From Hyphomonadaceae bacterium (GTDB lineage: Bacteria; Pseudomonadota; Alphaproteobacteria; Caulobacterales; Hyphomonadaceae), in the NCBI GenBank assembly GCA_022844475.1, contig JALHLR010000015.1:1-64000 (forward strand): a stretch of DNA of 64,000 nucleotides, in the 5' to 3' direction. Every line of letters starts with the position of its first letter. Position 1 is the first letter of the stretch. Under the pieces are notes generated by a model. It did no database searches. It saw only the letters and a list, made by a program, of their open reading frames with translations, and was not told the DNA's origin. Below are positions 39,415-54,056 of this stretch, one piece after another. Position numbers and translations under genes: made by a program.

Positions 39415-42012
39415 TCAGAAATCCTGACGTAACCCGATCGTCCCGAACAGGCCGCGCTCCTGCGTCATCACAAGCGGATTGCTGCTGTCCGTGAATTGCC
39501 CGCCCAGTTCGACATCGAAGAAGGTCGACCGGTTGAGATTGTACGACAGCGCAACCGAGCCCCGCGCCGAGGTCTCCTCGGACGATGAGTCCTTCCGGTT
39601 GCGCTGGTCCACCCGCAGCTTGGTATTCAGCCGCAGATCGCGCAGGATCGGATAGCGCATGTTGACCTGCAGCGTCTGCTGTTCCAGCGTCATGGTGTCC
39701 GCATACCTTACGCCGGCAATGAGGATTGCGCCCTCGGTGAAGACATCCGACGCCACCAGCTGCCCCGAATAGTAGTATTCCGTCCCCGTGCTCGGAAACG
39801 CTTCGACCCCGGCCGAAGCCTTGGTACCGGAGACGTTGGTCGCGATAACGTCGACATTGATCTGCAGGCTCTCCGTGATCGGCCGCGAAACGCTTATCGA
39901 CGCCGAGCGCGAATACGCCGTCCGGTCCTGAGCGAACTGGTAGATGTCTTCCGGCTGATAAGTCGTCAGCAGGTCATTAGGGTTCTCCACGCCCTGTCCA
40001 ATGATTGCATTCAGTGTCGTCAGCAACGGTGAGCGGCGATAGTCCACGGCAACCGAGATACTCGACTCATCCTCGAACCGCAGAGCGCCATTCAGAAGCG
40101 CCAGGTTGGTCTGCCCGAAATGCAGGTCGTAGTCGTAAACTCCGTAAGCCGTGAACAGCGAGTTGAAATACCTGAACTCCCCACCCACCGCCTTCCGGTC
40201 GACCAGGTCGCCATAGGTCTGATGAACATAATAGACCGTCGTGTCCAGTGCATCCTCGATCATCGCGAAGTCGACGCTTCCGCCAAACAACAATCGGTCC
40301 GTGTTCACCTCGAGATCGCGCGAGGATTGAACCGGGTAACCGCCCACCACGTTGAGCTTGAGATTCTCCGTCGCCTGGAAACTCAGCAGGCCGCCATCGA
40401 AGCGACCGAAGATCCCGCCCGTGTTCCGCGTCTGCCGCCCGAGGCGAACAGCCGTGTTCAACTCGCGGTCCGACACATCAAGATAGAGCGTGCTCACCCC
40501 TCCTTCATCGCGCTGGATGCCCGCGCGGAAATCGTCCCGGAACACCCCGGAGAACCGCAAAAGCCCTTCAGTGCGATCATTGCCAACCGTCAGGTTGATG
40601 TCGGCGCCATACAGTATCTCGTTGAGGTTGGTCCGGTTCTCCTCGATCGGATCCGGATTGACCTCCGGCCCGCCGACCACCGGCACATCCTCGAACAGGA
40701 AGCCACTCTCGTCGCGCTGGTACAGCATCGACAGCGAGCCTGAGAGCTCAGCCTTCACGCTCGAACTCGTCACTGTCTGCGGTCGGCCTTGTTCATCCAG
40801 CTGGCCCGGCCTGACGGTCTCCGGCTCCTCGCCGAGCAAGGCCGCCAACCGCTGCCGCACACGCGCAGCATTCGGATGGTCCGGATAGCGCGCGATGAAC
40901 GTCTCGTATTCAGCCTTCGCGTGAGCCAGCTGCTTGTTCCGCTCGCGCGCAAGCCCAAGTATCTCCTGCGCCTCCGGCGTCGCCGAACTCTCGGGCTGGC
41001 CCAGCAGACGTTCGGCAAGCCTGATCGCCGCCGCATTGTCGCCAGTCGCCAGCACGTCACGCAGTTCCTGCAGCAGCCCATCGGACACCGGATCAACGGG
41101 AAGCGCCGAAGGCTGTGAACTCGTCCCCGATCGCGCAGCCAGCCACGCCTGATAGACCCGCTCGCGCTCCGACCGGTCAATCCGTGCAATCCACGCTTCG
41201 GGATAGGCCGTCGCGACCTGTGGCAGGATCTGTTCCGCCTCCATCCGCGTCGCGAAAGTCCCCAGCCGCAGCCTCGTCCACTCTACTCCGTTTTCCTCTG
41301 CCGTGTACTGGTATCCCGCAAACTGCCCGAAGGCGTCGATCTGCTTGACCTCCTCAGCCGGCAACACCTTGCCGCGCTCGGACAGAAGGTTGATCGCGTA
41401 GTTGCCGTTGGGCTCCAGTGTTTCAGGCAGGGACTGCGTCACGGACTGGATGATGTTCGAACCTGACGACGCACTTGCTTGTCCGCCTGCTTCTGGAACG
41501 CATCCATCGCGCCCCGAAACGGTGATTACGAGGCGCGTCGCCGTCCTGTCCGGCTTCACATCCCAGTTGGCGTCATGGTCGAACTGCAGAACCAGCGTCG
41601 GCCCGGCCGGATCCGACACGTCATAGGTGATACGCTGGATGCCAGCCACCTTGCTCGATGGCGGCCGCAGGCTTTCCGTCGCCAGTGCGGTCGACAGCGA
41701 ACCACGGCTGAAGTTCAGCGGCTGCACCCCGATGCGCAGCTCGCGCCCGCCACGATCCGGAAAGTGCGACACGTAGCGGACCGGCACGTTGAAATCGATG
41801 TTCACCGTCGCACACGCGCCATTCTCCTGCGCGGTCACACGCGAGAGAAACCGGTCCGAGATCGTCTGCGCATAGCTCGACGGAGCGAGCTGGCTCGCCA
41901 TCGCGACGAACACGCTGCCCGCCAGCATTGTCCGTACCCGCAGTGCCCGAACGCGCGCGCACACCCCGTCGATCTGCTCGGGCCTCGCACGCTTCTGGTC
42001 CTTCACCGTCAT
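39415..42012 (-). CDS. Outer-membrane protein with N-terminal periplasmic domains and C-terminal beta-barrel
   Basis: 865 residues; signal sequence about residues 28-50 after a basic N-terminus, so the true start may be later than 42012. Residues 65-170 resemble an AMIN-like beta domain; about 210-290 (YAINLL..., TFATRMEAEQILPQV) resemble a SPOR domain; about 310-400 contain a TPR-like helical pair (AHAKAEYETFIARYPDHPNAARVRQRL). From about residue 425 to the end is a long run of amphipathic beta strands that ends GLFGTIGLRQDF, with C-terminal Phe, typical of an outer-membrane barrel. It is the last gene of an operon with two multiheme cytochromes, so a conduit through the outer membrane is possible. 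Similarity to MtrB/PioB was not seen by eye. Confidence 0.82.
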   Translation of the reverse strand: MTVKDQKRARPEQIDGVCARVRALRVRTMLAGSVFVAMASQLAPSSYAQTISDRFLSRVTAQENGACATVNIDFNVPVRYVSHFPDRGGRELRIGVQPLNFSRGSLSTALATESLRPPSSKVAGIQRITYDVSDPAGPTLVLQFDHDANWDVKPDRTATRLVITVSGRDGCVPEAGGQASASSGSNIIQSVTQSLPETLEPNGNYAINLLSERGKVLPAEEVKQIDAFGQFAGYQYTAEENGVEWTRLRLGTFATRMEAEQILPQVATAYPEAWIARIDRSERERVYQAWLAARSGTSSQPSALPVDPVSDGLLQELRDVLATGDNAAAIRLAERLLGQPESSATPEAQEILGLARERNKQLAHAKAEYETFIARYPDHPNAARVRQRLAALLGEEPETVRPGQLDEQGRPQTVTSSSVKAELSGSLSMLYQRDESGFLFEDVPVVGGPEVNPDPIEENRTNLNEILYGADINLTVGNDRTEGLLRFSGVFRDDFRAGIQRDEGGVSTLYLDVSDRELNTAVRLGRQTRNTGGIFGRFDGGLLSFQATENLKLNVVGGYPVQSSRDLEVNTDRLLFGGSVDFAMIEDALDTTVYYVHQTYGDLVDRKAVGGEFRYFNSLFTAYGVYDYDLHFGQTNLALLNGALRFEDESSISVAVDYRRSPLLTTLNAIIGQGVENPNDLLTTYQPEDIYQFAQDRTAYSRSASISVSRPITESLQINVDVIATNVSGTKASAGVEAFPSTGTEYYYSGQLVASDVFTEGAILIAGVRYADTMTLEQQTLQVNMRYPILRDLRLNTKLRVDQRNRKDSSSEETSARGSVALSYNLNRSTFFDVELGGQFTDSSNPLVMTQERGLFGTIGLRQDF

Positions 42013-42102
42013 AACTATACTCCGTCCCCCGCGCCTCCCGGCGCAGCGTCAGTCCCTGTGTCTCCCCAGCTATGAAAGTTCCCGGCCGCAAGCGGCCCCC
42101 CA

Positions 42103-43746
42103 TCAGTCGAACGAGTTGTCAGAAACCCGGTGGTTCGAGTTCCGCCGTTGGGCAATCGTCGTCATCGTGCTGTCCGTATAGGTGTGGCAGGCCCCCTCGC
42201 AGTCGCGCAGCTCGGCGACCGTATAGCGTGTCGAAGGCGTTCGCGTTTTCTGGTGCGCGTCGGACTCGTAGTCGTTCGCGTGACAAGCCGCACAATCTGG
42301 CTGGTAGGCCGGGCTGGGCCAGGCGACCTGCTGGGCGTTGTTGCGATGGCAGTCTGTGCAATCCAGCGCCGCACGGTGCTGGCCCGGGTATCCGGCGCTG
42401 TTGTGGGTGTAGCGCACGGTCGTCCAGCCGGTGGTGCTGTGGCACTCTTCGCAGGGCAGCGTGGTCACGAAGTGGTTCGCCGGCTTGCCTGTCGCGCTCG
42501 TTCCATTGTGACAGCTCGCGCACGATCCGGTCACAGCCGAATGGTCGAACGTCGCCGGTACCCAGGCCAGAGTCGAATGGCAGTCGCCGCACTGGGCGTT
42601 CGTCGCAATGTGCGCAGAGGGCTTTCCGGTAGCCACGGTCCCGTTGTGACAGGACGTGCAGGTTCCGCTCACTGCGTTGTGGTCCACCCGCACATTCGTC
42701 CACGCCGTGCTGACATGGCAGTCGTCGCATGTGTTGGTCGAGGCAATGTGGCTTGGGGGCTTGCCTGTCGCCTGTGTGCCATTGTGGCAGGTCGAGCACG
42801 ACCCCGTCACAGCCGAATGGTCGAACTGCACGTTCGTCCATGTCGTCGTGTTGTGACAGGTGTCGCAACCGGCCGTCGTCACGATGTGATTGGCTGGCTT
42901 GCCCGTCGCCTGAGTCCCGTTGTGACAGGTCGCGCACGATCCCGTCACGCTCGCATGATCGAACCGCACATTCGTCCAGTTCGTCGTGTTGTGGCAGCTG
43001 TCACAGCCCGCCGTCGTTGCAATGTGGTTTGCTGGCTTGCCTGTGGCGCTCGATCCATTGTGGCAGCTCGCGCAAGCGCCCGTCACGCTGGCATGATAGA
43101 ACCGGACGCTCGCCCAGTTCGTCGTGTTGTGACAGGTCTCGCATCCTGCCGTCGTAGGGATATGGTTTGCCGGCTTGCCCGTCGCCGCCGACCCGTTGTG
43201 ACAGCTCGCGCACGAGCCAGTCACATCGGCATGGTCGAACCGCACATTGGTCCAGTTCGACGTGACGTGGCAATTGTCGCACGTTGCGTTCGTCTGGATG
43301 TGGTTCGCAGTCTTGCCCCGGGCGACGGAGTTGTTGTGGCAAGTTGCGCACGTCGCTGTCGCCGTCGAGTGATCGAAACGAACGCGAGACCAGCTTGCCG
43401 TCGCGTGACAGGACTCGCAGTCCGCATTGGTCGGGATATGCCGGAAGGGCTTGCCCGGCGCGATCGTATCGTTGTGGCAATCACGGCATTGCGTGGGCAG
43501 CGCCTGAAATTTTCCGTTCGTGTGGCAGTTGTCGCAGCTGACCGACCTGTGCGCTCCGTCAAGCGGGAAGCCAGTCGAGAAGTGGTCGAACTGTATCGTC
43601 ACCTCATCGACTGGATCTTGCGCATGCGCAGGCGCGACCACAGTCGAAGTCATCAGCACGGCAACCGCAATCACCAACACCGCCAGCGCCCGCGAGGCCG
43701 CAGTGACGAAAGGCCAGATGTTCCTGTCCGGACGGCGGTGGGCCAT
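42103..43746 (-). CDS. Periplasmic multiheme cytochrome c, 19 CXXCH plus one CX3CH
   Basis: The ATG at 43746 gives 547 residues with a signal peptide (hydrophobic 20-40, cleaved near AHA-Q). CXXCH first-Cys positions are 71, 87, 110, 133, 156, 179, 202, 225, 248, 271, 294, 317, 340, 363, 386, 409, 432, 463 and 485, with a CEGACH (CX3CH) at 516. From 87 to 432 the spacing is exactly 23 residues. Each unit carries one further His, alternately in an NHI context and an FDH context, suitable as the distal heme ligand. No membrane anchor or lipobox is seen, so it should be soluble in the periplasm. It lies between a 24-heme cytochrome and a barrel protein. An upstream frame to 43929 would add 61 residues before the signal peptide and is rejected. 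Confidence 0.9.
   Translation of the reverse strand: MAHRRPDRNIWPFVTAASRALAVLVIAVAVLMTSTVVAPAHAQDPVDEVTIQFDHFSTGFPLDGAHRSVSCDNCHTNGKFQALPTQCRDCHNDTIAPGKPFRHIPTNADCESCHATASWSRVRFDHSTATATCATCHNNSVARGKTANHIQTNATCDNCHVTSNWTNVRFDHADVTGSCASCHNGSAATGKPANHIPTTAGCETCHNTTNWASVRFYHASVTGACASCHNGSSATGKPANHIATTAGCDSCHNTTNWTNVRFDHASVTGSCATCHNGTQATGKPANHIVTTAGCDTCHNTTTWTNVQFDHSAVTGSCSTCHNGTQATGKPPSHIASTNTCDDCHVSTAWTNVRVDHNAVSGTCTSCHNGTVATGKPSAHIATNAQCGDCHSTLAWVPATFDHSAVTGSCASCHNGTSATGKPANHFVTTLPCEECHSTTGWTTVRYTHNSAGYPGQHRAALDCTDCHRNNAQQVAWPSPAYQPDCAACHANDYESDAHQKTRTPSTRYTVAELRDCEGACHTYTDSTMTTIAQRRNSNHRVSDNSFD
42385..43488 (-). repeat. Sixteen 23-residue heme repeats (69-bp period, 138-bp higher-order unit)
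   Basis: Residues 87-454 of the cytochrome form sixteen 23-residue units without a single insertion or deletion. Alternate units are more alike (46-residue, 138-bp higher-order repeat: NGxxATGKPANHIxTTAG units and NTTNWTNVRFDHAxVTGS units). DNA identity between neighbouring 138-bp units is visibly high, suggesting growth by duplication. Confidence 0.88.
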
Positions 43747-43840
43747 CGAACTGTTCTCGCAATCAACGACAGCGCCCAGTACTCCCACCGGGAACCACCT
43801 ATTCCTCTGTCTACGGATGACACAATGGCTGTACGGAAAT

Positions 43841-45610
43841 TTAATTCGTGACTCCTCTCGTTTTCGAGAAATCTTCTGTCGTGTGGCATCGCTCGCAGGT
43901 TGTACCGAACGAACCCCGATGCTTGTCATCAGCGACGTGGCACGTGATGCACCGGGTTGAGATGTCGATCTGACCCATCACGGGCGTGCGGTGACAGCTC
44001 TCGCAATCAGCCTGCTTGTGCTTGCCGGTCAGCGGATAGTCGGTCTGGGTGTCGTGGTTGAACGTCCAACGCATCCACTCCACGGGGTTGTGGCATGTGG
44101 AGCAGTCGGCGCCGAACCGCCCCTTGTGGATGTCCTGCTTCTGGTGACACGAGCCGCACACCGGATCGGCGTCCAGGAAAGCGGGGCTGGTATGGCATTG
44201 TACACATGTCAGGCCGTCATGCTTTCCGAGTAGCGGGAAATCCGTCAGGTCGTGATCGAAACGAACATTGGTCTTCCAGTCCGTTTCGCCATGACACTGG
44301 CCGCATCCATCACCAAGTTGACGCTTATGCGGATCATCGTCGCGGTGACACCCGATGCAACTCGACGGCGGCGCCTTCACATGCGTCGGCTCTTTGTGAC
44401 AGGAGGCGCATGTCGCTGAAGAATGCTTGCCCTTGAGCGCAAAGCCAGCGTCCCGCTCATGCTGGAACCGCACATTTGTCCAGCCCGTCTCGGCGTGGCA
44501 GTCGGCGCATTTGGGGCCAAGAAGCCCCTTGTGCGTGTCGTCATTCTCGTGACACCCGCTGCAGGCCGTCGGCGGAACCCAGTCCTTCACCGGCTTCGTG
44601 TGGCAGCTCTCACATTTCACGGACGCATGCTTGCCCTTCAAGGCAAAATCCGTCTTCGAATGATCAAACGTAACGTTCGTCCAGGAACGCGGCGTATGGC
44701 AGTCGGCGCAGGCTGTTCCATTCCTTCCCTTGTGCGAGTCATCCTTGGCGTGACACCCGTTGCAGGTCGTCGGAAGCGGCGCGTCGAGACCCTTGGTGTG
44801 GCACGACTCGCATCTCGCTTCGGCATGCTGGCCAATGAGCGCGAAGCCGGTCCTTGCATGGTCGAACGAATCGACCTTCCAGGCTGTTTCCTTGTGGCAT
44901 GATGCGCAGTCCGTCCCAAACTTGCCGTTATGTGCGTCGTCCTTGGCGTGACAGGAGACGCACGTCGTCGCGAGGTCTTTCCACTTTTCGTTCACGTGGC
45001 AGGCGGCGCACTGGGTGCTGGCGTGCTTCCCCTTCAGTGCGAAACTCGTCTTGCCGTGGTCAAACGATACGGTCTTCCAGCTCGAGACCACATGGCACGT
45101 GGCGCATGCCGTCCCCAACTGGCCCTTGTGAGGTTCGTCGGCCTTGTGACAGCTTGAGCAGTCCGTGGGCGTCTTCGCGTGTTTCACGCCCTTCTGGTGG
45201 CATTCCGCACACGTTACCCGCGCATGCGCGCCCAGTAGCGGCATATCGGTAAAGCGGTGGTCGAACGTCTTCTCATCTAGAATGACCAGGATCGCATTCC
45301 GCCCCTCATGCTCGACATGACAGGTCTTGCACTCCTTGCCGGCCACCAGAGGCGAGCGGCCATGGAATCCCCGCTTGTTCGTTACATCGAAGGCCGTTTC
45401 CTTGTGACAGTCCAGGCACTTCGCTGGTTGCCCAGCCTTGTTGAACGACTCGTGGCAGACATTGCATGTCGCCTCGAGTTTCTCGTGCGCGCGCGACAAG
45501 GGTCCCGGTGAAACGAGGCGTTCCAGCGGGTTTTGCGCCATGGCCACAGGCGCCGCCATCAACGCGACGACGCCGAACAAGGCAATCAGCAGGGCGCGGA
45601 TCGTCGGCAT
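43841..45610 (-). CDS. Periplasmic 24-heme cytochrome c built from triheme modules
   Basis: 589 residues with signal peptide ending PVAMAQ. There are 24 CXXCH motifs (first Cys at 49, 65, 94, 134, 151, 169, 201, 217, 235, 267, 283, 301, 333, 350, 368, 401, 418, 436, 469, 485, 503, 536, 554 and 572). After three N-terminal hemes, seven triheme modules follow with a period of 66-68 residues (gaps about 16-18, 18 and 32-33). Extra His residues in FDH and GKH contexts can serve as distal ligands. No membrane anchor is present. The start is six bases after the stop of the cytochrome b-like gene, indicating cotranscription. Confidence 0.93.
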   Translation of the reverse strand: MPTIRALLIALFGVVALMAAPVAMAQNPLERLVSPGPLSRAHEKLEATCNVCHESFNKAGQPAKCLDCHKETAFDVTNKRGFHGRSPLVAGKECKTCHVEHEGRNAILVILDEKTFDHRFTDMPLLGAHARVTCAECHQKGVKHAKTPTDCSSCHKADEPHKGQLGTACATCHVVSSWKTVSFDHGKTSFALKGKHASTQCAACHVNEKWKDLATTCVSCHAKDDAHNGKFGTDCASCHKETAWKVDSFDHARTGFALIGQHAEARCESCHTKGLDAPLPTTCNGCHAKDDSHKGRNGTACADCHTPRSWTNVTFDHSKTDFALKGKHASVKCESCHTKPVKDWVPPTACSGCHENDDTHKGLLGPKCADCHAETGWTNVRFQHERDAGFALKGKHSSATCASCHKEPTHVKAPPSSCIGCHRDDDPHKRQLGDGCGQCHGETDWKTNVRFDHDLTDFPLLGKHDGLTCVQCHTSPAFLDADPVCGSCHQKQDIHKGRFGADCSTCHNPVEWMRWTFNHDTQTDYPLTGKHKQADCESCHRTPVMGQIDISTRCITCHVADDKHRGSFGTTCERCHTTEDFSKTRGVTN

Positions 45611-45616
45611 CCGGGG

Positions 45617-46612
45617 CTAGTAGAAGTGCACGGCCACGATGTGGATGCCGGCCGCTACCAGCATGAGAAAGAAGAGCGGCATATGCACGATGTGCCATAG
45701 CGCAAACAGCCGCTCGAAGAATGTCAGGTACGCGGTGTGCCGCAACTCGTGACAGTAGGTGCGCACCAGCAACGCGCCGTCCCGCTTCAGTCGTCTGGCT
45801 GCAACCTTGCCGCCCGGCGCCGAATCCATGCGCTTCGCGCCACGCGCGAGTGCCCGCAGCATCTTGCGGCGAGCGATGGTGATCCGCGCTGACGTGGCGA
45901 GGGCGTAGCCGAGCGCATCGAACACATTCGGGCGCGGCTCGTGCAGAGTCTTCTCGAGCGCCTCAGTGATGTCCGCAACCTCGGAGAAATCCCGACACAG
46001 CGTCTGGCGCAGCAGCGCCGTATCCTGCGCCATCGCTTTAACTTCGGCTTTCTTGCCTTTGAGGTTCCGATGGATTCGCACATACAGCATGCGTCCAAAC
46101 AGTCCGCTGCCCGCAACAATCAGCATCGTCACCAGGGCAACAGCAGCATTGACTGAACCGGTCCTGAATCCAGCATGAAACAGAATGAAAGTCGGCGCGA
46201 GAATCCCCAGCGCCATGTGCAGATGGAACCAGCTGGGAACGCTGCCGAGGAAGGCAAGCTTCGGGAAGCGCTTGCGAACGGGATAAAAGAGCAGGAGGCC
46301 CACACAGGCCACGCCTGCAATGCCGAGCCAGTACCCGACGCCGACTTCGGCCTCGATCTGCAACTGTTCCTTGAACACCAATCCGAAGGACAGGGCAGCG
46401 GCAATCAGCGTCAAATAGAAGGGGAAAATGCGAAAACCGGCCTTCGGCTTTCGGGCGGCGGCTGCGAGGGCAGCGGTCCGCGGCGGCTCTGGAACAGGCC
46501 AGTCAAGCGGAGGATTCGCGACGGCTTTCAGCGGAGGTCGCAGCTTCGGTTCATCAACGATGTCTCGGAGGACCAGCGCTGCACCGCGCCGCGAACCGTG
46601 GGGACCCTGCAC
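45617..46612 (-). CDS. Cytochrome b-like membrane protein
   Basis: A GTG at 46612 with GGAG upstream starts a 331-residue protein. After a Pro-rich cytoplasmic-looking N-terminus come four transmembrane helices (about 62-82, 93-112, 130-149 and 153-175), a long polar helical segment (180-295), and a final helix (300-331). His130, His132 and His146 in one helix, and His307, His310, His324 and His329 in the last helix, are well placed for one or two b hemes, as in b561 or ferric-reductase-like proteins. It heads an operon with two multiheme cytochromes and is the natural inner-membrane link between quinones and periplasmic hemes. Exact family not recognised. Confidence 0.75.
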   Translation of the reverse strand: MQGPHGSRRGAALVLRDIVDEPKLRPPLKAVANPPLDWPVPEPPRTAALAAAARKPKAGFRIFPFYLTLIAAALSFGLVFKEQLQIEAEVGVGYWLGIAGVACVGLLLFYPVRKRFPKLAFLGSVPSWFHLHMALGILAPTFILFHAGFRTGSVNAAVALVTMLIVAGSGLFGRMLYVRIHRNLKGKKAEVKAMAQDTALLRQTLCRDFSEVADITEALEKTLHEPRPNVFDALGYALATSARITIARRKMLRALARGAKRMDSAPGGKVAARRLKRDGALLVRTYCHELRHTAYLTFFERLFALWHIVHMPLFFLMLVAAGIHIVAVHFY

Positions 46613-46692
46613 TAAATACTCCGCGCACTGATGATGCGCTCCCCAGTGCTCGCCTCATGACACGCTCGTGCTGTGATGAAAAGTCTGCAGTC

Positions 46693-46706
46693 ATGAAATA
46701 ATTCAT
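46693..46706. promoter_or_regulatory. Candidate operator in the divergent cytochrome/ccm promoter region
   Basis: A perfect inverted repeat ATGAA-N4-TTCAT sits near the centre of the 179-bp gap between the leftward cytochrome operon and rightward ccmF. This gap is clearly A/T-richer than its surroundings. It is a plausible site for a shared regulator; it is not a standard FNR or RegA/PrrA sequence. Confidence 0.35.
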
Positions 46707-46791
46707 AGGTTTCGGGACTGGCGTTTTCTTGCGCACGAGTCCAATAGTGCGTCTCTGGGGCGCGCATCACGACGACATCGATTGTTGTCGC

Positions 46792-48798
46792 ATGGTAGAG
46801 TGCGAGCCTCCCTTGATCAGCGAACTCGGACTTTTCGCTCTTATCCTTGCATTGATGGTTTCGATCGCACAGGGCGTCGCACCCTTGTGGGGTGCTGCGC
46901 ATGGCAAGACGCGCCTGATGCGCTTCGGCGCTTCGGCGGCGATCGCGCAATTCGCGCTCGTTGCATTTGCATTCACATGCCTCGTCTGGGCGTTCACCGC
47001 TTCTGACTTTTCGCTGAAAGTCGTCGCCGCGAACTCGCACACGCTGAAGCCGATGTTCTACAAGATCTCCGCCGCATGGGGGCAGCACGAAGGTTCCATG
47101 CTGCTCTGGGTGGTCGTGCTCTCCGGCTTTGGCGCGGCAATCGCCGTTTTCGGGAACAACCTGCCCGCCACGCTGAAGGCGCGCGCCCTTGGCGTGCAGG
47201 GCCTGATCGGCGTGGCGTTCCTCGCCTTCATCCTGTTCACGTCCAATCCATTCGCGCGCCTGCTTCCCGCTCCGCTTGAGGGCATGGGCTTCAACCCGCT
47301 GCTGCAGGACCCCGGTCTCGTTGTCCATCCGCCGATGCTCTATCTGGGGTATGTCGGCTTCTCGGTTGCCTACTCCTTCTCGGTCGCTGCGCTGATCGAG
47401 GGCAAGGTGGACGCCGCGTGGGCACGCTGGGTGCGGCCCTGGGTGCTCGCCGCATGGTGCTTTCTCACCATCGGCATCATGCTCGGCAGTTTCTGGGCCT
47501 ATTACGAACTCGGCTGGGGCGGCTGGTGGTTCTGGGATCCGGTCGAGAACGCGTCCTTCATGCCGTGGCTGATCGGCACCGCGCTGCTGCATTGCGCACT
47601 TGTGGTCGAGCGGCGCCATGCGCTGGTCAACTGGACGCTGCTGCTGTCGATCCTAGCCTTCACACTCAGCCTGATTGGCACCTTCCTCGTCCGCTCCGGT
47701 ATACTCACCAGCGTTCACGCCTTCGCCGTCGATCCAGCACGCGGCGTCTTCATTCTCGCGATGGTGATCGCAGCATCCGGCGGCGCATTCACGCTCTACG
47801 CCCTGCGTGCGCGCCAATTGCAGCAGCCGCCATCCTTCGCGCCGATCAGCCGGGAAGGCGCGATTCTCGGCAACAACTTCCTGCTGCTGATCGCCTGCGC
47901 TGTCGTCTTCCTTGGTACATTCTATCCGCTCGTGATTGACGCACTCTCCGGCGACAAGATCTCCGTCGGCCCGCCCTATTTCAACATAACTTTCGGCCCG
48001 ATCATGCTGGCCGTCACTGCGCTGATGGCCTTCGGGCCGATGATGCGCTGGCGCAGCGATGCCGCAAAGCCTGCAGGCAATGCCATGCGCATACCGATGG
48101 CCGTCGGCCTCATCGCCGGTCTCACATCAGGGATTATCGGACAGAGCCTCCCCGGCGGACTCGGCATCGGCTTTGGCGTGTTTCTCATCGCCGCAATGGC
48201 GCGCTGGATGCAGGTTCGGCTGCGCATCGGACAGGTGAAGCCCGAGCAGTCGCTCTTCTTCGCCCGCGCCTTTCCGCGATCGACCTGGGGCTTCGTCATC
48301 GCCCATCTTGGTTTCGCAGTCGCCGTGCTCGGCATCACCGCGATGTCTGCGTGGGAGAAGGATTCCATGTCGTCCCTCCGGATCGGAGATTCGACCACGC
48401 TGGGCACGCGGTCCTTCACGCTGACGCAGGTGCAGAATGTGAAAGGCGCGAACTACGACGCCCAGCGCCTGACCTTCGCCGTCGCTGACGATGGCGCTCC
48501 CGAAGAGGTAATGGTCAGTGAGCGGCGCTACTACCCGGAACGCGACACCGTCACCACCGAGGCAGGCATACGCATGGGCTTCCTGTCGAACCTCCACCTG
48601 ACCGCGGGCGAGGACAATGGCACGGGGGCGTTTGCAGTACGTGTCACGCATCACCCTCTAGCGATGTGGATCTGGTCCGGCGCCCTGCTGATGGCGATGG
48701 GCGGATTCGTCTCCCTGTCGGATCGCCGTTTCCGTGTCGGGGCTCCGCACAAGGTGCGCGCGCCGGCGATCCCTGCAGTTGCGGGAGTTGCGGTATGA
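46792..48798 (+). CDS. ccmF: Heme lyase CcmF/NrfE family
   Basis: About 668 residues, a many-helix membrane protein. The heme-handling tryptophan-rich WWD motif is clear (WGGWWFWDPVENASFMPWL), as are FYKISAAWGQHEGSMLLW and HPPMLYLGYVG, with His residues for heme b. CcmF attaches heme to apocytochromes c in the periplasm. The start is uncertain: ATG 46792, or TTG 46813, which gives MISELGLFALILAL, closest to the usual family beginning. The first of a rightward ccmFGHI set, divergent from the cytochromes it presumably serves. ccmABCDE are not in the window. Confidence 0.93.
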   Translation: MVECEPPLISELGLFALILALMVSIAQGVAPLWGAAHGKTRLMRFGASAAIAQFALVAFAFTCLVWAFTASDFSLKVVAANSHTLKPMFYKISAAWGQHEGSMLLWVVVLSGFGAAIAVFGNNLPATLKARALGVQGLIGVAFLAFILFTSNPFARLLPAPLEGMGFNPLLQDPGLVVHPPMLYLGYVGFSVAYSFSVAALIEGKVDAAWARWVRPWVLAAWCFLTIGIMLGSFWAYYELGWGGWWFWDPVENASFMPWLIGTALLHCALVVERRHALVNWTLLLSILAFTLSLIGTFLVRSGILTSVHAFAVDPARGVFILAMVIAASGGAFTLYALRARQLQQPPSFAPISREGAILGNNFLLLIACAVVFLGTFYPLVIDALSGDKISVGPPYFNITFGPIMLAVTALMAFGPMMRWRSDAAKPAGNAMRIPMAVGLIAGLTSGIIGQSLPGGLGIGFGVFLIAAMARWMQVRLRIGQVKPEQSLFFARAFPRSTWGFVIAHLGFAVAVLGITAMSAWEKDSMSSLRIGDSTTLGTRSFTLTQVQNVKGANYDAQRLTFAVADDGAPEEVMVSERRYYPERDTVTTEAGIRMGFLSNLHLTAGEDNGTGAFAVRVTHHPLAMWIWSGALLMAMGGFVSLSDRRFRVGAPHKVRAPAIPAVAGVAV

Positions 48799-49364
48799 GC
48801 GACGTGTCGCAATCTCGCGCAGCGCTCCCAGCCTGGGTCGCCGTGATACCTGTCGCGATCCTGCTGATCATCGGCGGCTTCTTCGCCTGGGGCCTTACGC
48901 GCAATCCGGCCGAGTTGCCCTCGACCATGATCGACCGCGAAATGCCTGACTTCGCGCTCACCCGCCTGACGCCGGAGCGCGAGGCGCTGACCAAGCAGGA
49001 CCTGATCGGCAAGGTCTCGCTGGTGAACGTCTTCGGCTCATGGTGCTCAAGCTGCATCCTCGAACATCCGCAGCTCGAAGCGATCGCCGGGTCGAAGCAG
49101 GTCGCGCTCTATGGCGTCGACTGGCGCGATCCGCCGGGAGCGGGCGCGGCGTGGCTCGCACGCTATGGCGACCCCTATATAAAGACAGGCGTGGACAGCG
49201 ACAGCCGCCTTGCCATCGACCTCGGCGTCACCGGCGCGCCAGAGACGTTCCTTGTCGATCGCGAAGGTCGCATCCGTTACAAGCAGGTCGGACCCATCAC
49301 GCCCGAACTCTGGGCCGATACGATCCTTCCCCTCATCCGCAAGCTGGAAGCGGAGCCCACATGA
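48795..49364 (+). CDS. ccmG: CcmG/DsbE thiol:disulfide interchange protein
   Basis: The ATG overlaps the ccmF stop (ATGA). The 189-residue protein is anchored by one helix (about 13-33) and has a thioredoxin fold with the active site WCSSC (Cys84/Cys87), the acidic partner Asp-containing GVDWRDP, and the cis-Pro loop GVTGAPETFLVD. CcmG keeps heme-binding CXXCH cysteines reduced before heme attachment. Overlaps ccmH by four bases. Confidence 0.94.
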   Translation: MSDVSQSRAALPAWVAVIPVAILLIIGGFFAWGLTRNPAELPSTMIDREMPDFALTRLTPEREALTKQDLIGKVSLVNVFGSWCSSCILEHPQLEAIAGSKQVALYGVDWRDPPGAGAAWLARYGDPYIKTGVDSDSRLAIDLGVTGAPETFLVDREGRIRYKQVGPITPELWADTILPLIRKLEAEPT

Positions 49365-49822
49365 AACGCCTGATTGTCGCCCTCGCGCTTGCGACATCGC
49401 CCGCCACGGTCGCCCAGACACCTCCGGCAACGTTCACGCCCGAAGTGGAGTCGCTGGCGCGCGAGGTGGGGAAGTCACTGCGTTGCGTCGTCTGCCAGAA
49501 CCAGTCGATCGAGGAATCCAACGCGCCGCTGGCGTCGGACATGCGCCGTCTCGTTCGCGAGCGGATCGCCGCAGGTGAGAGCAAGGACGCCGTCATGGCC
49601 TACATGACCGATCGCTATGGCAATTTCGTCCGCCTGCAACCGCCGTTGCAGATGGACACGCTACTGCTCTGGTTCGGGCCGCTTCTGCTTCTCGTGGTCG
49701 GCGCGGTTGGCTGGTTCGCCTACCTTCGCCCGGCTGGAAAACACGATCTCGCGCCCGTTCCGCTCAGCGATGCTGAGGTCGCCGAGCTGGCGCGCCGCAT
49801 GGAAGCAGGAGGCAAGGCCTGA
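49361..49822 (+). CDS. ccmH: Cytochrome c maturation protein CcmH (CcmL-type)
   Basis: 153 residues with a signal peptide ending TVAQ, the LRCVVCQNQSI motif (Cys42/Cys45) that reduces apocytochrome thiols, and one C-terminal transmembrane helix (about 100-122). It works with CcmF, CcmG and CcmI in the apocytochrome-handling arm of the Ccm system. Overlaps both neighbours. Confidence 0.95.
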   Translation: MKRLIVALALATSPATVAQTPPATFTPEVESLAREVGKSLRCVVCQNQSIEESNAPLASDMRRLVRERIAAGESKDAVMAYMTDRYGNFVRLQPPLQMDTLLLWFGPLLLLVVGAVGWFAYLRPAGKHDLAPVPLSDAEVAELARRMEAGGKA

Positions 49823-51033
49823 TGCTCTGGTTTCTCATCACGCTACTCATGGCTGCTGCAATCGCCGCCACATGCTGGCCATTCCTGCGCCGCAACCGCA
49901 TCGCCGACGGCGCGAGCGCCGACATCTACACGTCACAACTGAACGAGATCGCCCGCGAGGAATCGCTGGGCCTTACCTCAGCCGACGACGCGCGCATGGC
50001 GCGCACTGAAATCCAGCGCCGCCTGATCACGACGACAGACGAGGCCGCAATCCGCGAGGACGCAGACATGACATTGACCGACCGCACCACCTTTATCGCT
50101 GTCGCCGCCTCTATGGCGATCGGATCCGCCATTCTCTATGGCATGGTTGGCTCGCCCCGTGTCGGCGCCACGCCGCAGGCCATCATGATGGCCGCATCGG
50201 GCGGCGGCATGCAGATCGCCGACGCCAGCGCGGCCGGCGGTCAGATCAGCGTGGCGCCCGTCGACGAGATGATCTCCAGCCTCGAGACGCGGCTCGCAAA
50301 CGAACCAGGCGACGTCGAAGGCTGGCGCATGCTCGGCTGGTCGAAGTTCAGGACCGACGACTTTGCAGGCGCCGCCGCAGCTTATGGCCGCGCCATCGCT
50401 ATCGCCCCGAACGACGCCGAAACGCAGTCGGCCTATGGCGAGTCGCTTTCCCGTGCCGCCGGCGGTCTTGTCACTGATGAGGCGGCCGCCGCACTGCAGG
50501 CCGCCTACAAGGCAGATCCCAAGGACGCGCGCGCCCGCTTCCTGCTCGGCTTGAAGAAGCAGCAGGATGGCAAGCCTCAAGAGGCGCTGAACGACTGGCT
50601 TACCATGTTGAAGACAGCCGAGGCCGATGCGCCATGGTTTGACGAGGTGCGGGGTCGTGTCGTCGAGCTCTCTCTGTCTTCGGGAGTTGATGTTTCCGCC
50701 CGGCTTCCGGCAGCGCGCACCGCTGTTGCACCGATGGCGGAGCGGCCTGCCGGGCCTACGACGGCTCAGGTCTCCGACGCCGAGGCCATGTCGCCTCAGG
50801 CCCGGCAGGCAATGATTGACGGCATGGTCTCGCGCCTGGACGCGCGGCTGCAGGCAAACCCGGCCGACCTCGACGGCTGGCTCCGCCTCATCCGCGCGCG
50901 CCGAGTGCTAGGCCAGGAAGACCAGGCGCTTGCGGCTCTGGTGAAGGGCAAGACCATCTTCGCAGCCGACCCCGCCGCGCAGCAGCAGCTCGCCGCCGTG
51001 ATGGCCGAGCCGATCCAGGTTTCCTCCAACTAG
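49822..51033 (+). CDS. ccmI: Cytochrome c maturation protein CcmI
   Basis: 403 residues. Two N-terminal transmembrane helices (about 2-20 and 88-108) flank a cytoplasmic loop, then a periplasmic TPR region (VEGWRMLGWSKFRTDDFAGAAAAYGRA, ARFLLGLKKQQDGKPQEAL). CcmI acts as a chaperone that binds apocytochrome C-terminal helices and delivers them to CcmF/H. The ATG overlaps the ccmH stop by one base. Confidence 0.92.
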   Translation: MLWFLITLLMAAAIAATCWPFLRRNRIADGASADIYTSQLNEIAREESLGLTSADDARMARTEIQRRLITTTDEAAIREDADMTLTDRTTFIAVAASMAIGSAILYGMVGSPRVGATPQAIMMAASGGGMQIADASAAGGQISVAPVDEMISSLETRLANEPGDVEGWRMLGWSKFRTDDFAGAAAAYGRAIAIAPNDAETQSAYGESLSRAAGGLVTDEAAAALQAAYKADPKDARARFLLGLKKQQDGKPQEALNDWLTMLKTAEADAPWFDEVRGRVVELSLSSGVDVSARLPAARTAVAPMAERPAGPTTAQVSDAEAMSPQARQAMIDGMVSRLDARLQANPADLDGWLRLIRARRVLGQEDQALAALVKGKTIFAADPAAQQQLAAVMAEPIQVSSN

Positions 51034-51047
51034 ACGGAGCTGAAGCG

Positions 51048-52355
<1,308 letters not shown>

Positions 52356-52457
52356 GGGGCAACCCGCCGTCCTGCGCCACAGTTCTGATGCACCGCAGCG
52401 TGACTGACGCGGGATTTCCGCCTTCTATGCTGAAAAGCAGAGAATCCGGGGAGAGCA

Positions 52458-54056
52458 ATGAAGCGTTCAAACTTCTGGCTGGCGGCCTCCGTGCTTGGCA
52501 TCGCAGCCTGCACCTCGACGCAAACCGCACCGGATGCTCCGGCAACCCTGGCTGCCGTCAGCGCGGACCAGCTTGCGGGCCAGGTTGTCTACAACCAGTT
52601 CTGCTCCGCCTGCCACAATGGCGGCGACGAGACTGCGCCGGTGCTGGATGACCTTCACGGTCTTGGCCAGGAGCGGATCACCGCCGCGCTGGCTCCCGGC
52701 GGCCTCATGGCCCTGCAGTCCGGCATGATCAACACGCAGCAGCGCGCACAGGTGATCGCCTTTCTGTCCACGCCGGCCAGCGCAACGCCCCAGTTCGCCA
52801 ACGCGGACCTCAGCACCGATCCGACCGGGCTCAATCGGAGCGCATATGTCGAGGGCATTCCCTATCCCGCGCGCCGCATCCGCGACGAGCGCGACGGCGC
52901 CGATGGTCCGCGTCCGTCCGCATGGCCGGCTCCCAAGCTTGGGGTTGGTCCATTCCAGTTCGAATCGTGGGAACAGCGCGACCTGCGCGTGTCCGTCGTC
53001 GCGCGCGGTCTGACATCACCGCGGGCGATCGAATTCCTGCCAAGCGGCGATATTCTGGTCGCAGAGCGCTCGGGAAGTCTCCGTATCATCAGGAATGGCA
53101 AGCTCGATCCCGCGCCCATCGCCGGCACGCCCAAGGTCGCCGTGCTCGGAACCGCAACAGGCTTCATGGATGTCATCCTGCATCCGGACTTCCGGAGCAA
53201 CGGACTGATCTACCTGTCCTACCACAAGCCGGCGCATGGGGAGTACGGCAACAACGCCATCTTCCGCGGACGCTGGAACGGCGTCGAGATCGTCGACGGC
53301 AAGGACATCTTCGTCGGCGACGATGTCGATGCGCTCTACACCAAGATGGCATTCGGACCGGACGGGAAGCTCTACTTCACCATCGGCTGTCCGGGAGTCG
53401 GCACGGACGAGTCGATCGGCCGCGCCCAGAGGCCGGACGACTATGCCGGCAAGACGCTGCGCCTGAATGACGACGGCACGTTGCCGAAGGACAATCCGTT
53501 CGGGGGCAAGGCCGGCTACAATCCCGAACTCTACACGATCGGCCACCGCGTCAATCTTGGACTGACCCTCAACCCATGGACGAAGGAGTTCTGGGTTTCC
53601 GAGCATGGCCCGCAGGGCGGCGACGAGATCAACGTGCTGAAGCCGGGCCAGAACTATGGCTGGCCGCTGGTCAGTGACGGCCGCTACTACTCTGGAACGA
53701 AGGTCTCGCCAGTACCCTACAGGGAAGGGCTGACGCGTCCGCATATTTCCTACGTGCCGTCGATCGCCCCGGGCGGGATGCTGTTCTACACCGGCGACAA
53801 GTTTCCGGGGTGGAAAGGCAACCTGTTTGTCGGGGCCATGCGCATGAGCAACTCCCCTCGTACCGGCCATCTCGAGCGGATCGTGTTCAACGAAAAATGG
53901 GAAGTCGTACGCAGTGAGATGCTGTTGTTCGACCTGCATCAGCGTATCCGCGACGTCGAACAGAGCCCCGACGGCTATCTTTATGTGATCACCGACGAAG
54001 GCGCCGAAAGCGTGCTCATGAAAATCGAGCCCGGCGCGCCAACGCCACAGCAGTGA
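52458..54056 (+). CDS. Cytochrome c-fused PQQ-type sugar dehydrogenase lipoprotein
   Basis: 532 residues, with GGGGAGAG before the ATG. Lipobox GIAAC (Cys18). A small cytochrome c domain follows, with CSACH (Cys49, Cys52, His53) and a Met-containing LQSGM as possible sixth ligand. Residues from about 180 are a glucose/sorbosone dehydrogenase (Asd-type) propeller with the typical FLPSGDILVAER, NGLIYLSY, GHRVNLG and EHGPQGGDEINVL segments. Such enzymes oxidise aldoses with PQQ and here could pass electrons straight to the fused heme. PQQ synthesis genes are not in the window. It lies 102 bases downstream of the Fe-S/FAD gene. Confidence 0.9.
   Translation: MKRSNFWLAASVLGIAACTSTQTAPDAPATLAAVSADQLAGQVVYNQFCSACHNGGDETAPVLDDLHGLGQERITAALAPGGLMALQSGMINTQQRAQVIAFLSTPASATPQFANADLSTDPTGLNRSAYVEGIPYPARRIRDERDGADGPRPSAWPAPKLGVGPFQFESWEQRDLRVSVVARGLTSPRAIEFLPSGDILVAERSGSLRIIRNGKLDPAPIAGTPKVAVLGTATGFMDVILHPDFRSNGLIYLSYHKPAHGEYGNNAIFRGRWNGVEIVDGKDIFVGDDVDALYTKMAFGPDGKLYFTIGCPGVGTDESIGRAQRPDDYAGKTLRLNDDGTLPKDNPFGGKAGYNPELYTIGHRVNLGLTLNPWTKEFWVSEHGPQGGDEINVLKPGQNYGWPLVSDGRYYSGTKVSPVPYREGLTRPHISYVPSIAPGGMLFYTGDKFPGWKGNLFVGAMRMSNSPRTGHLERIVFNEKWEVVRSEMLLFDLHQRIRDVEQSPDGYLYVITDEGAESVLMKIEPGAPTPQQ

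What the first reader, a model, noticed from the sequence alone, without database searches (positions are those of the whole stretch)
39415..54056. A two-armed locus that looks like an uncharacterised multiheme electron-transfer system
Seen: leftward genes encode a His-rich membrane protein, a 24-CXXCH cytochrome, a 19-CXXCH (+1 CX3CH) cytochrome and an outer-membrane barrel. Rightward genes, from the same 179-bp gap, encode CcmF/G/H/I, a membrane-anchored Fe-S/FAD oxidoreductase and a cytochrome-fused sugar dehydrogenase. Known: porin-cytochrome conduits such as MtrCAB and PioAB carry electrons across the outer membrane. Inferred: this locus could link NAD(P)H, quinones or sugars to an outside acceptor or donor. 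The components differ from Mtr/Pio (no decaheme MtrA-like protein, barrel with AMIN/SPOR/TPR-like domains). Direction and substrate unknown.
Basis: partly seen in the sequence, partly recalled or inferred. Interest (0 to 1): 0.9.

Follow-up and report, generated by a model that had tools for sequence, protein, structure and literature searches.

The report
Heme wire with a hidden NADPH-type reductase
The locus is a known but uncharacterised bacterial outer-membrane electron wire (PCC3), and comparing many genomes shows that it nearly always travels with a predicted cell-interior flavin and iron-sulfur enzyme, which suggests the wire connects the cell's NAD(P)H pool, and not just its membrane, to the outside world.

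Summary
In detail: 24-CXXCH and 19-CXXCH (+1 CX3CH) cytochromes, a barrel, a His-rich membrane protein, and a divergent CcmFGHI / Fe-S-FAD / sugar-dehydrogenase arm are all there. The leftward arm is not an unknown system: it meets the tested sequence features of PCC3 (He et al. 2017), including the two WX3HX13H motifs and SGXXG of its inner-membrane protein (IMP).

What looks new is in the rightward arm. The membrane-anchored 2x[4Fe-4S]/FAD oxidoreductase lies within 4.8 kb of the IMP in 71 of the 80 best IMP loci; 7 of the 9 others are cut at contig ends. In two genome samples it occurs at full length in exactly the genomes with a PCC3-type IMP: 6 of 398 and 14 of 250 (2 shared). The PCC3 passages I read do not mention it. 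I propose it as a fifth core PCC3 part: a cytosolic NAD(P)H dehydrogenase feeding a NOX/ferric-reductase-like IMP, so most likely an outward wire. Substrate, coupling and direction are inferred, not shown.

CcmFGHI is a lineage-specific dedicated set (CcmF in 21 of 80 loci). The sugar dehydrogenase is not part of the system (0 of 80).

The parts
39415..42012 (-). Outer-membrane barrel (PCC3 porin): N-terminal beta-rich, SPOR and TPR-like part, then a 22-strand C-terminal barrel
   Evidence: Pfam; AlphaFold2 model; Foldseek hits to porins and ushers; homologue called in 46 of 80 related loci, 27 of 29 with at least 9 kb downstream
42103..43746 (-). Extracellular multiheme cytochrome (19 CXXCH + C-terminal CX3CH, mostly 23-aa heme repeats); the ORF runs to 43929, likely start Met62
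   Evidence: one CX3CH in 31 of 44 complete related ORFs
43841..45610 (-). Periplasmic multiheme cytochrome, 24 CXXCH in three-heme repeats
   Evidence: relatives carry 18, 21, 24 or 27 CXXCH in 71 of 72 complete ORFs
45617..46612 (-). Inner-membrane protein (IMP), 5 hydrophobic segments, two WX3HX13H motifs and SGXXG: predicted two-heme cytochrome b
   Evidence: sequence; A5 alignment; hydropathy; motif counts; published signature
46613..46791 (.). Divergent intergenic region between the two arms (179 bp)
46792..48798 (+). CcmF, heme lyase of the PCC3-linked clade (ORF opens at TTG 46729)
48795..49364 (+). CcmG/DsbE thioredoxin-like protein
49361..49822 (+). CcmH
49822..51033 (+). CcmI, TPR apocytochrome chaperone
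51048..52355 (+). Membrane-anchored 2x[4Fe-4S]/FAD oxidoreductase (TrxR/YpdA-like fold), proposed fifth core PCC3 part
52458..54056 (+). GSDH-type sugar dehydrogenase with a cytochrome c part: next to, but not part of, the conserved system
   Evidence: 0 of 80 related loci carry it

Best explanation
This is a PCC3 conduit with its previously unlisted cytosolic dehydrogenase. [quoted passage not shown] Its two Fe-S clusters pass electrons to the IMP, a ferric-reductase/NADPH-oxidase-like cytochrome b with two b-hemes. The 24-heme protein carries them over the periplasm, and the 20-heme protein carries them through or beyond the barrel to an outside acceptor. CcmFGHI is a dedicated heme-attachment set for these heme-dense proteins in this lineage. 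Shown here: the parts, their fit to PCC3, near-invariable co-occurrence and proximity of the flavoprotein with the IMP, its predicted topology and cofactor motifs, and the separate clade of CcmF. Inferred: NAD(P)H as substrate, coupling to the IMP, outward direction, the acceptor.
For: PCC3 fit: porin, two large MHCs and an IMP with the published motifs. Linkage: of the 80 best IMP loci (of 325), 71 carry the flavoprotein within 4.8 kb of the IMP, 65 on the opposite strand (70 by ORFs, L041 having a fragment at its contig edge). 7 of the 9 without are cut at contig ends, and 4 of those 7 genomes have it on another contig. Co-occurrence: 6 of 398 sampled genomes of the phylum have the PCC3-type IMP (127 bits or more; next 46) and exactly these 6 have the full-length flavoprotein. 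In 250 genomes of the order of G366, 14 and exactly the same 14, in 13 of 14 as neighbours. Fisher p 2e-13 and 3e-23, relatedness not corrected. G364 and G366 are in both, so 18 different genomes. Flavoprotein: 31 relatives 48-76% identical; CIGHGACxxxC in 70 of 70; a TrxR-like YRxxxFxRxK segment (recalled as NADPH-type) in 63 of 67 full-length; no CxxC behind the Fe-S part in 67 of 67; more K/R after than before the single TM in 68 of 69. Other IMP families: 23 of 30 examined loci have a flavin reductase near the IMP. S. lithotrophicus ES-1: both PCC3 clusters are down on Fe(II) (PMC8788666, passages). CcmF: 15 of 16 PCC3-linked copies form one clade (100/99) apart from second copies.
Against: No direct evidence of NAD(P)H use or of direction. 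L071 and L079 (Pseudomonadales MAGs) have IMP, MHCs and barrel but no flavoprotein in 9.8 and 9.6 kb upstream nor elsewhere in their genomes at E 1e-30. L041 (edge fragment only), L042 and L109 also had no match elsewhere, and L047 a weak partial one. In G042 and G366 it is on another contig. G007, without a PCC3-type IMP, has a partial match of 236 bits. No Pfam or PDB sequence match ties the IMP to ferric reductases; weak hits include DUF4405 and b561. In Sideroxydans CL21 the IMP of one PCC3 copy rises with iron oxidation (PMC12442390, passages), which fits uptake.
Confidence: 0.6

Rival explanations
1. Inward wire: the conduit takes electrons from Fe(II) or another outside donor and the flavoprotein uses them to reduce NADP+ for biosynthesis, with the membrane potential as a drive or a second donor by bifurcation.
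For: PCC3 was found in iron oxidisers and modelled as an uptake path (PMC5566968, passages); one PCC3 IMP is up during iron oxidation in CL21. The same parts could run either way.
Against: Both PCC3 clusters of ES-1 go down on Fe(II). Several hosts come from groups that I recall as heterotrophs. Electron flow from Fe(II) to NADP+ is steeply uphill and runs against the usual membrane potential (general knowledge).
Confidence: 0.2
2. The flavoprotein is a maturation factor: it supplies electrons for thiol or heme reduction while the CcmFGHI set loads the many hemes, and the IMP works with quinone alone, as He et al. proposed.
For: It lies in one run with CcmFGHI here and in other alphaproteobacteria; a CycH/CcmI-type chaperone precedes the IMP in gammaproteobacterial loci (two checked by Pfam); its fold is thioredoxin-reductase-like.
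Against: 52 of 71 flavoprotein loci have no CcmF in the stretch (some stretches are short). No CxxC outside the Fe-S region in 67 of 67, so the TrxR disulfide mechanism is absent. Two Fe-S clusters fit electron relay better than thiol chemistry (inference).
Confidence: 0.15
3. The two arms are neighbours only by shared regulation or chance, and the flavoprotein serves another pathway.
For: In G042 and G366 it lies on another contig; L071 and L079 lack it.
Against: Exact co-occurrence of full-length members in 398 and 250 genomes, including the two genomes where it is not adjacent.
Confidence: 0.05

Closest known systems
PCC3 porin-cytochrome c complex (He et al. 2017, PMC5566968; passages read)
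   Same: Barrel, extracellular MHC rich in small residues, periplasmic MHC, IMP of about 300 aa with two WX3HX13H and SGXXG
   Different: The passages list four parts and model electron exchange with the quinone pool; here an Fe-S/FAD protein, and in some lineages CcmFGHI or a Sel1-ankyrin protein, are added
MtrCAB / MtoAB / PioAB
   Same: Trans-outer-membrane barrel with multiheme cytochromes
   Different: 24 and 19+1 heme motifs instead of decahemes; 22 predicted strands; barrel with SPOR/TPR part; no CymA-type quinol oxidase seen in the locus
NADPH oxidase / ferric reductase (NOX, FRE)
   Same: Works like it if correct: NAD(P)H flavoprotein feeding a two-heme transmembrane cytochrome b with HX13H pairs
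   Different: Split subunits, TrxR-type flavin fold plus two Fe-S clusters, electrons continue along about 44 c-hemes; no sequence match
YpdA/Bdr and TrxR-type ferredoxin-NADP reductases (7apr, 3ab1)
   Same: Same flavoprotein core (Foldseek E 1.7e-22 and 3.1e-18, TM-score by target 0.57 and 0.52)
   Different: N-terminal membrane helix and 2x[4Fe-4S]; the TrxR C-terminal motif seems to lie before the FAD fold; no active-site disulfide
PCC4 and other IMP clusters (He et al. 2017)
   Same: IMP with HX13H pairs and an accompanying redox protein, which those authors noted
   Different: The non-PCC3 IMP clusters seen here have flavoproteins of other families (Pyr_redox-cNMP-Fer4, or FNR-type); whether they are PCC4 was not tested

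Membership tests
PCC3 | Outer-membrane beta-barrel porin gene in the cluster | tested here: met
   22-strand barrel predicted; Foldseek matches to porins, usher pores and other barrels
PCC3 | Extracellular MHC with many hemes, low-complexity repeats | tested here: met
   19 CXXCH + 1 CX3CH, mostly 23-aa repeats; surface location itself not tested
PCC3 | Periplasmic MHC (published median 21 hemes) | tested here: met
   24 CXXCH; location inferred from a signal-peptide-like start
PCC3 | IMP of about 300 aa, five TM, WX3HX13H on TM3 and TM5, SGXXG on TM4 | tested here: met
   331 aa, 5 hydrophobic segments, motifs present, invariant in the 25 rows of A5
PCC3 | Electron transfer to or from an outside partner | not testable with these tools
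   needs experiment
MtrCAB/PioAB | Decaheme MtrA-family cytochrome with MtrB-family barrel | tested here: not met
   24 and 19+1 heme motifs; no decaheme in the locus; stretches of the 19-heme protein do match a decaheme DmsE model (below its cut-off) and the MtrC/MtrF domain II/IV model; no MtrB entry among the 50 Foldseek rows shown of 1164
NOX/ferric reductase | Ferric_reduct (PF01794) domain | tested here: not met
   Not among the 16 families matched by the 25 IMPs at E<=1
NOX/ferric reductase | Two HX13H heme b pairs in the membrane, fed by an NAD(P)H flavoprotein | tested here: inconclusive
   HX13H pairs present; flavoprotein linked; function untested
TrxR / YpdA disulfide reductases | Redox-active CxxC in the NADPH domain (recalled for TrxR) | tested here: not met
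   No CxxC behind the Fe-S region in 67 of 67 full-length relatives

The most novel reading that the evidence does not exclude
PCC3 is not primarily an iron oxidase but a five-part, trans-envelope NAD(P)H oxidase: a split NOX-like module whose electrons are carried by tens of c-hemes to the cell surface, where they reduce minerals, humics or O2 (possibly making extracellular superoxide). It would be a widespread way for otherwise aerobic Proteobacteria to dump cytosolic reducing power outside the cell.
Probability: 0.35. Interest if true: 0.82.

Novelty: new variant of a known kind. Interest (0 to 1): 0.62.

Why it matters
PCC3 is carried by many bacteria, holds very heme-rich proteins, and in the papers seen here has no proven function or direction; it has been read mainly as a candidate iron oxidase. 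A strictly co-occurring, predicted cytosolic NAD(P)H-type flavoprotein would supply the missing inner end of the wire. It predicts the electron donor or acceptor inside the cell, makes direction testable by one deletion and one enzyme assay, and gives a second marker gene (CIGHGAC motif) for finding the system in genomes.

Tried and rejected
Rejected: a new porin-cytochrome class (the four left-arm genes meet the PCC3 features). Rejected: the sugar dehydrogenase as a part (0 of 80). Rejected: CcmFGHI as a core part (CcmF in 21 of 80; 20 by ORFs). Rejected: the CX3CH as the reason for a dedicated Ccm set, since one CX3CH also occurs in relatives without CcmF (31 of 44 complete ORFs have it; CcmF list). 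Considered: a Sel1-ankyrin protein as a core part. It is directly downstream of the flavoprotein in 40 of 70 loci, 44 if overlaps of 118-145 bp are allowed (6 of the 70 have under 600 bp left there), but it is absent after the window's flavoprotein and in L043-L046, L101 and L107.

Led nowhere: IMP profile against PDB sequences (chance-level hits); phmmer of the cytochromes against PDB (weak). The permuted order of the TrxR C-terminal motif rests on weak single matches (E 0.12 and 0.36 among five listed, the best being an unrelated chain) plus the alignment A3; it was not checked on coordinates.

Limits: the 80 loci are the 80 best of 325 and so biased to the window's IMP. 4 of 80 gave no separate IMP ORF (L070, L077, L082, L091); distances for all come. 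The genome searches scored only a few candidates per genome (mostly 4, 6). Co-occurrence p-values ignore relatedness. For other IMP families I looked at 30 of the 46 non-PCC3 places, with label queries taken from 6 of those loci. For the CcmF tree I used the genomes of 15 of the 20 CcmF loci plus the window's; 30 of the 34 matches became loci; L137 carries one stop in its match and was used as the open ORF; L148 is partial; the tree is drawn with a midpoint root and warns of long branches. Figures and supplements of the papers were not seen, so the flavoprotein could appear there unnamed. Searches behind 'not mentioned': (listings) and passages (12 of 14 PCC3 places).
Full report
WHAT IS THERE. 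The window lies in contig C15 of a 3.17-Mb, 78% complete genome. Minus strand from 46612: a 331-aa membrane protein, a 24-CXXCH cytochrome, a 19-CXXCH + 1 CX3CH cytochrome, and an 865-aa barrel protein. Plus strand from 46792 (ORF from 46729): CcmF, CcmG, CcmH, CcmI, an Fe-S/FAD oxidoreductase, and a GSDH-type sugar dehydrogenase with a cytochrome c part. The two cytochromes hold 43 of the 49 CXXCH in the six-frame translation of the window. The barrel model (27-row alignment A4, pLDDT 82) has 22 long strands after an N-terminal part that holds a SPOR match and TPR-like helices.

LEFT ARM = PCC3. He et al. 2017 (PMC5566968; [quoted passage not shown] The window IMP has five hydrophobic segments, WFHLH...H and WHIVH...H with 13-residue spacing, and SGLFG. 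These positions are invariant in the 25 rows of A5. Both histidine motifs are in 72 of 76 IMP ORFs of the related loci, the other 4 (L039, L042, L047, L093) being cut at contig ends; SGXXG is in 74 of 76. Bradyrhizobium sp. STM 3843, named as a PCC3 host in that paper, was among the loci found (L048).

THE FLAVOPROTEIN IS LINKED. A scan of genome contigs with an IMP alignment gave 325 relatives; the best 80 were kept. By ORFs 70 of 80 carry the Fe-S/FAD protein; tblastn adds a fragment at the contig edge of L041, so 71 of 80. In all 71 it lies within 4.8 kb of the IMP, on the opposite strand in 65 and the same strand in 6 (L062, L065, L066, L081, L096, L097), either directly or behind other genes such as a CcmI-like gene, a CcmFGHI block or a Sel1-ankyrin gene. 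Nine lack it: L039, L042, L047, L069, L104, L109 and L114 are cut at a contig end there; L071 and L079 have 9.8 and 9.6 kb upstream without it. In the genomes of the ten loci that lacked it by ORFs, a full-length copy was found on other contigs for L039, L069, L104 and L114, a weak partial match for L047, and none for L041, L042, L071, L079 and L109.

CO-OCCURRENCE. In 398 genomes of the phylum, 45 have an IMP relative, but only six score 127 bits or more (G000, G147, G042, G246, G364, G366; next 46 bits). The flavoprotein profile at E <= 1e-60 hits those six at full length and one other genome (G007) partially, 236 bits over positions 119-428. In G246 it lies about 8 kb from the IMP, past the barrel gene; in G042 and G366 it is on another contig. 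In 250 genomes of the order of G366, 28 have an IMP match at E <= 1e-10, of which 14 score 197 bits or more (next 77); the flavoprotein is in exactly these 14 of 250. In 13 of the 14 the two are neighbours. G364 and G366 occur in both samples. Fisher p is 1.9e-13 and 3.4e-23, without correction for shared ancestry. The four same-family genomes listed in the phylum sample have neither, so the system is patchy.

WHAT THE FLAVOPROTEIN IS. 31 relatives are 48-76% identical to it. The first cluster motif has Cys at its second position in 62 of 70, Ser in 7 and Ala in 1 (the window has Ser); the second is CIGHGACxxxC in 70 of 70, that is, three Cys and one His. One N-terminal hydrophobic helix is followed by positive charge (more K/R after than before in 68 of 69), which places the redox part in the cytoplasm by the positive-inside rule. 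The AlphaFold2 model (pLDDT 87) matches YpdA/Bdr and TrxR-type ferredoxin-NADP reductases. A YRxxxFxRxK segment, which I recall as an NADPH-type motif, is in 63 of 67 full-length members, and none of the 67 has a CxxC behind the Fe-S part. The TrxR C-terminal motif (TFETDVPGLFIAGE) seems to lie before the FAD fold: residues 170-434 align with residues 3-271 of YpdA, while residues 110-168 give weak matches to residues 269-292 of an FNR and 240-285 of a TrxR (E 0.12 and 0.36). The order looks permuted; this is suggestive only.

OTHER IMP CLUSTERS. Of 46 non-PCC3 IMP places I examined 30; 23 have a flavin reductase of another family next to or near the IMP: a Pyr_redox-cNMP-Fer4 fusion before a 10-heme protein, or an FNR-type reductase before a protein of 7 to 12 hemes (Pfam domains were checked for 7 of them). 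Seven have none called (L157-L160, L164-L166; L159 starts at a contig end). He et al. had noted a redox protein in such clusters; their passages name none for PCC3, and the present data supply one.

CCM. CcmF lies in 21 of 80 loci. In the 16 genomes searched, each has at least one further CcmF match besides the linked one, in pieces in G627 and G634. In a tree of 30 CcmF proteins, 15 of 16 PCC3-linked ones form a clade (100/99) separate from the second copies; L134, from a groundwater gammaproteobacterium, does not join it. So the alphaproteobacterial loci examined keep a dedicated heme lyase for the system. In gammaproteobacterial loci a CycH/CcmI-type chaperone often precedes the IMP (Ig_CycH found in both proteins tested, L054 and L113).

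NOT PART. The sugar dehydrogenase is absent from all 80 loci.

MECHANISM AND DIRECTION. The parts give a possible path from a cytosolic flavin via two Fe-S clusters, two b-hemes and 44 c-type heme motifs to the surface. I favour export of electrons from NAD(P)H: the flavoprotein is predicted cytosolic, IMP clusters of other kinds also carry NAD(P)H-type reductases, and both PCC3 clusters of ES-1 fall on Fe(II) (PMC8788666, passages). Against this, a PCC3 IMP rises with iron oxidation in CL21 (PMC12442390, passages). Nothing here measures activity, and direction stays open.

NOVELTY. PCC3 itself is known. In the passages and searches listed under Tried and rejected I found no statement that an Fe-S/FAD protein, CcmFGHI or a Sel1-ankyrin protein belongs to PCC3. 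Figures and supplementary tables were not seen. I therefore file this as a new variant of a known kind: PCC3 plus a proposed dehydrogenase subunit.

Noticed in passing
L039-L118 (periplasmic MHC ORFs): CXXCH counts of the periplasmic PCC3 cytochrome are quantised: 18 (14 ORFs), 21 (43), 24 (13), 27 (1) and one 22, i.e. 71 of 72 complete ORFs are multiples of three, as if built from three-heme modules.
   Followed up: partly
window 42103-42300 and relatives: The extracellular cytochrome ends in a conserved block LRDCxGACH...RRNSxHRVSD with a single CX3CH. One CX3CH occurs in 31 of 44 complete related ORFs, and it is C-terminal in the 11 printed tails that carry it (14 printed). Its role is unknown.
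   Followed up: partly
L063, L094, L059: Extracellular cytochromes of at least 89 and 90 CXXCH (L063, L094, ORFs cut at the end of the stretch held) and 73 complete (L059); the 2017 paper gave 85 as the largest then known.
   Followed up: no
window 51048-52355: In the Hyphomonas-like relatives the first Fe-S motif loses its second Cys (CCGSAAC or CCGAGAC); across 70 relatives 7 have Ser and 1 Ala there, so the first cluster may differ in type or potential.
   Followed up: no
L048, L051, L065, L096, L100 and others: A Sel1-plus-ankyrin-repeat protein (493-961 aa in the five scanned) directly follows the flavoprotein gene in at least 40 of 70 loci; function unknown.
   Followed up: partly
L033 (G259), L031, L036: A second kind of IMP cluster (Pyr_redox-cNMP-Fer4 fusion, IMP, 10-heme protein) sits next to CcmF/H/I or CcmI-like genes, another IMP-Ccm link.
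   Followed up: partly
L071, L079: Two Pseudomonadales PCC3 loci lack the flavoprotein and have instead genes for proteins of 419-443 aa and 707-821 aa; in L071 the larger has a Laminin_G_3 domain and the smaller no Pfam match.
   Followed up: no
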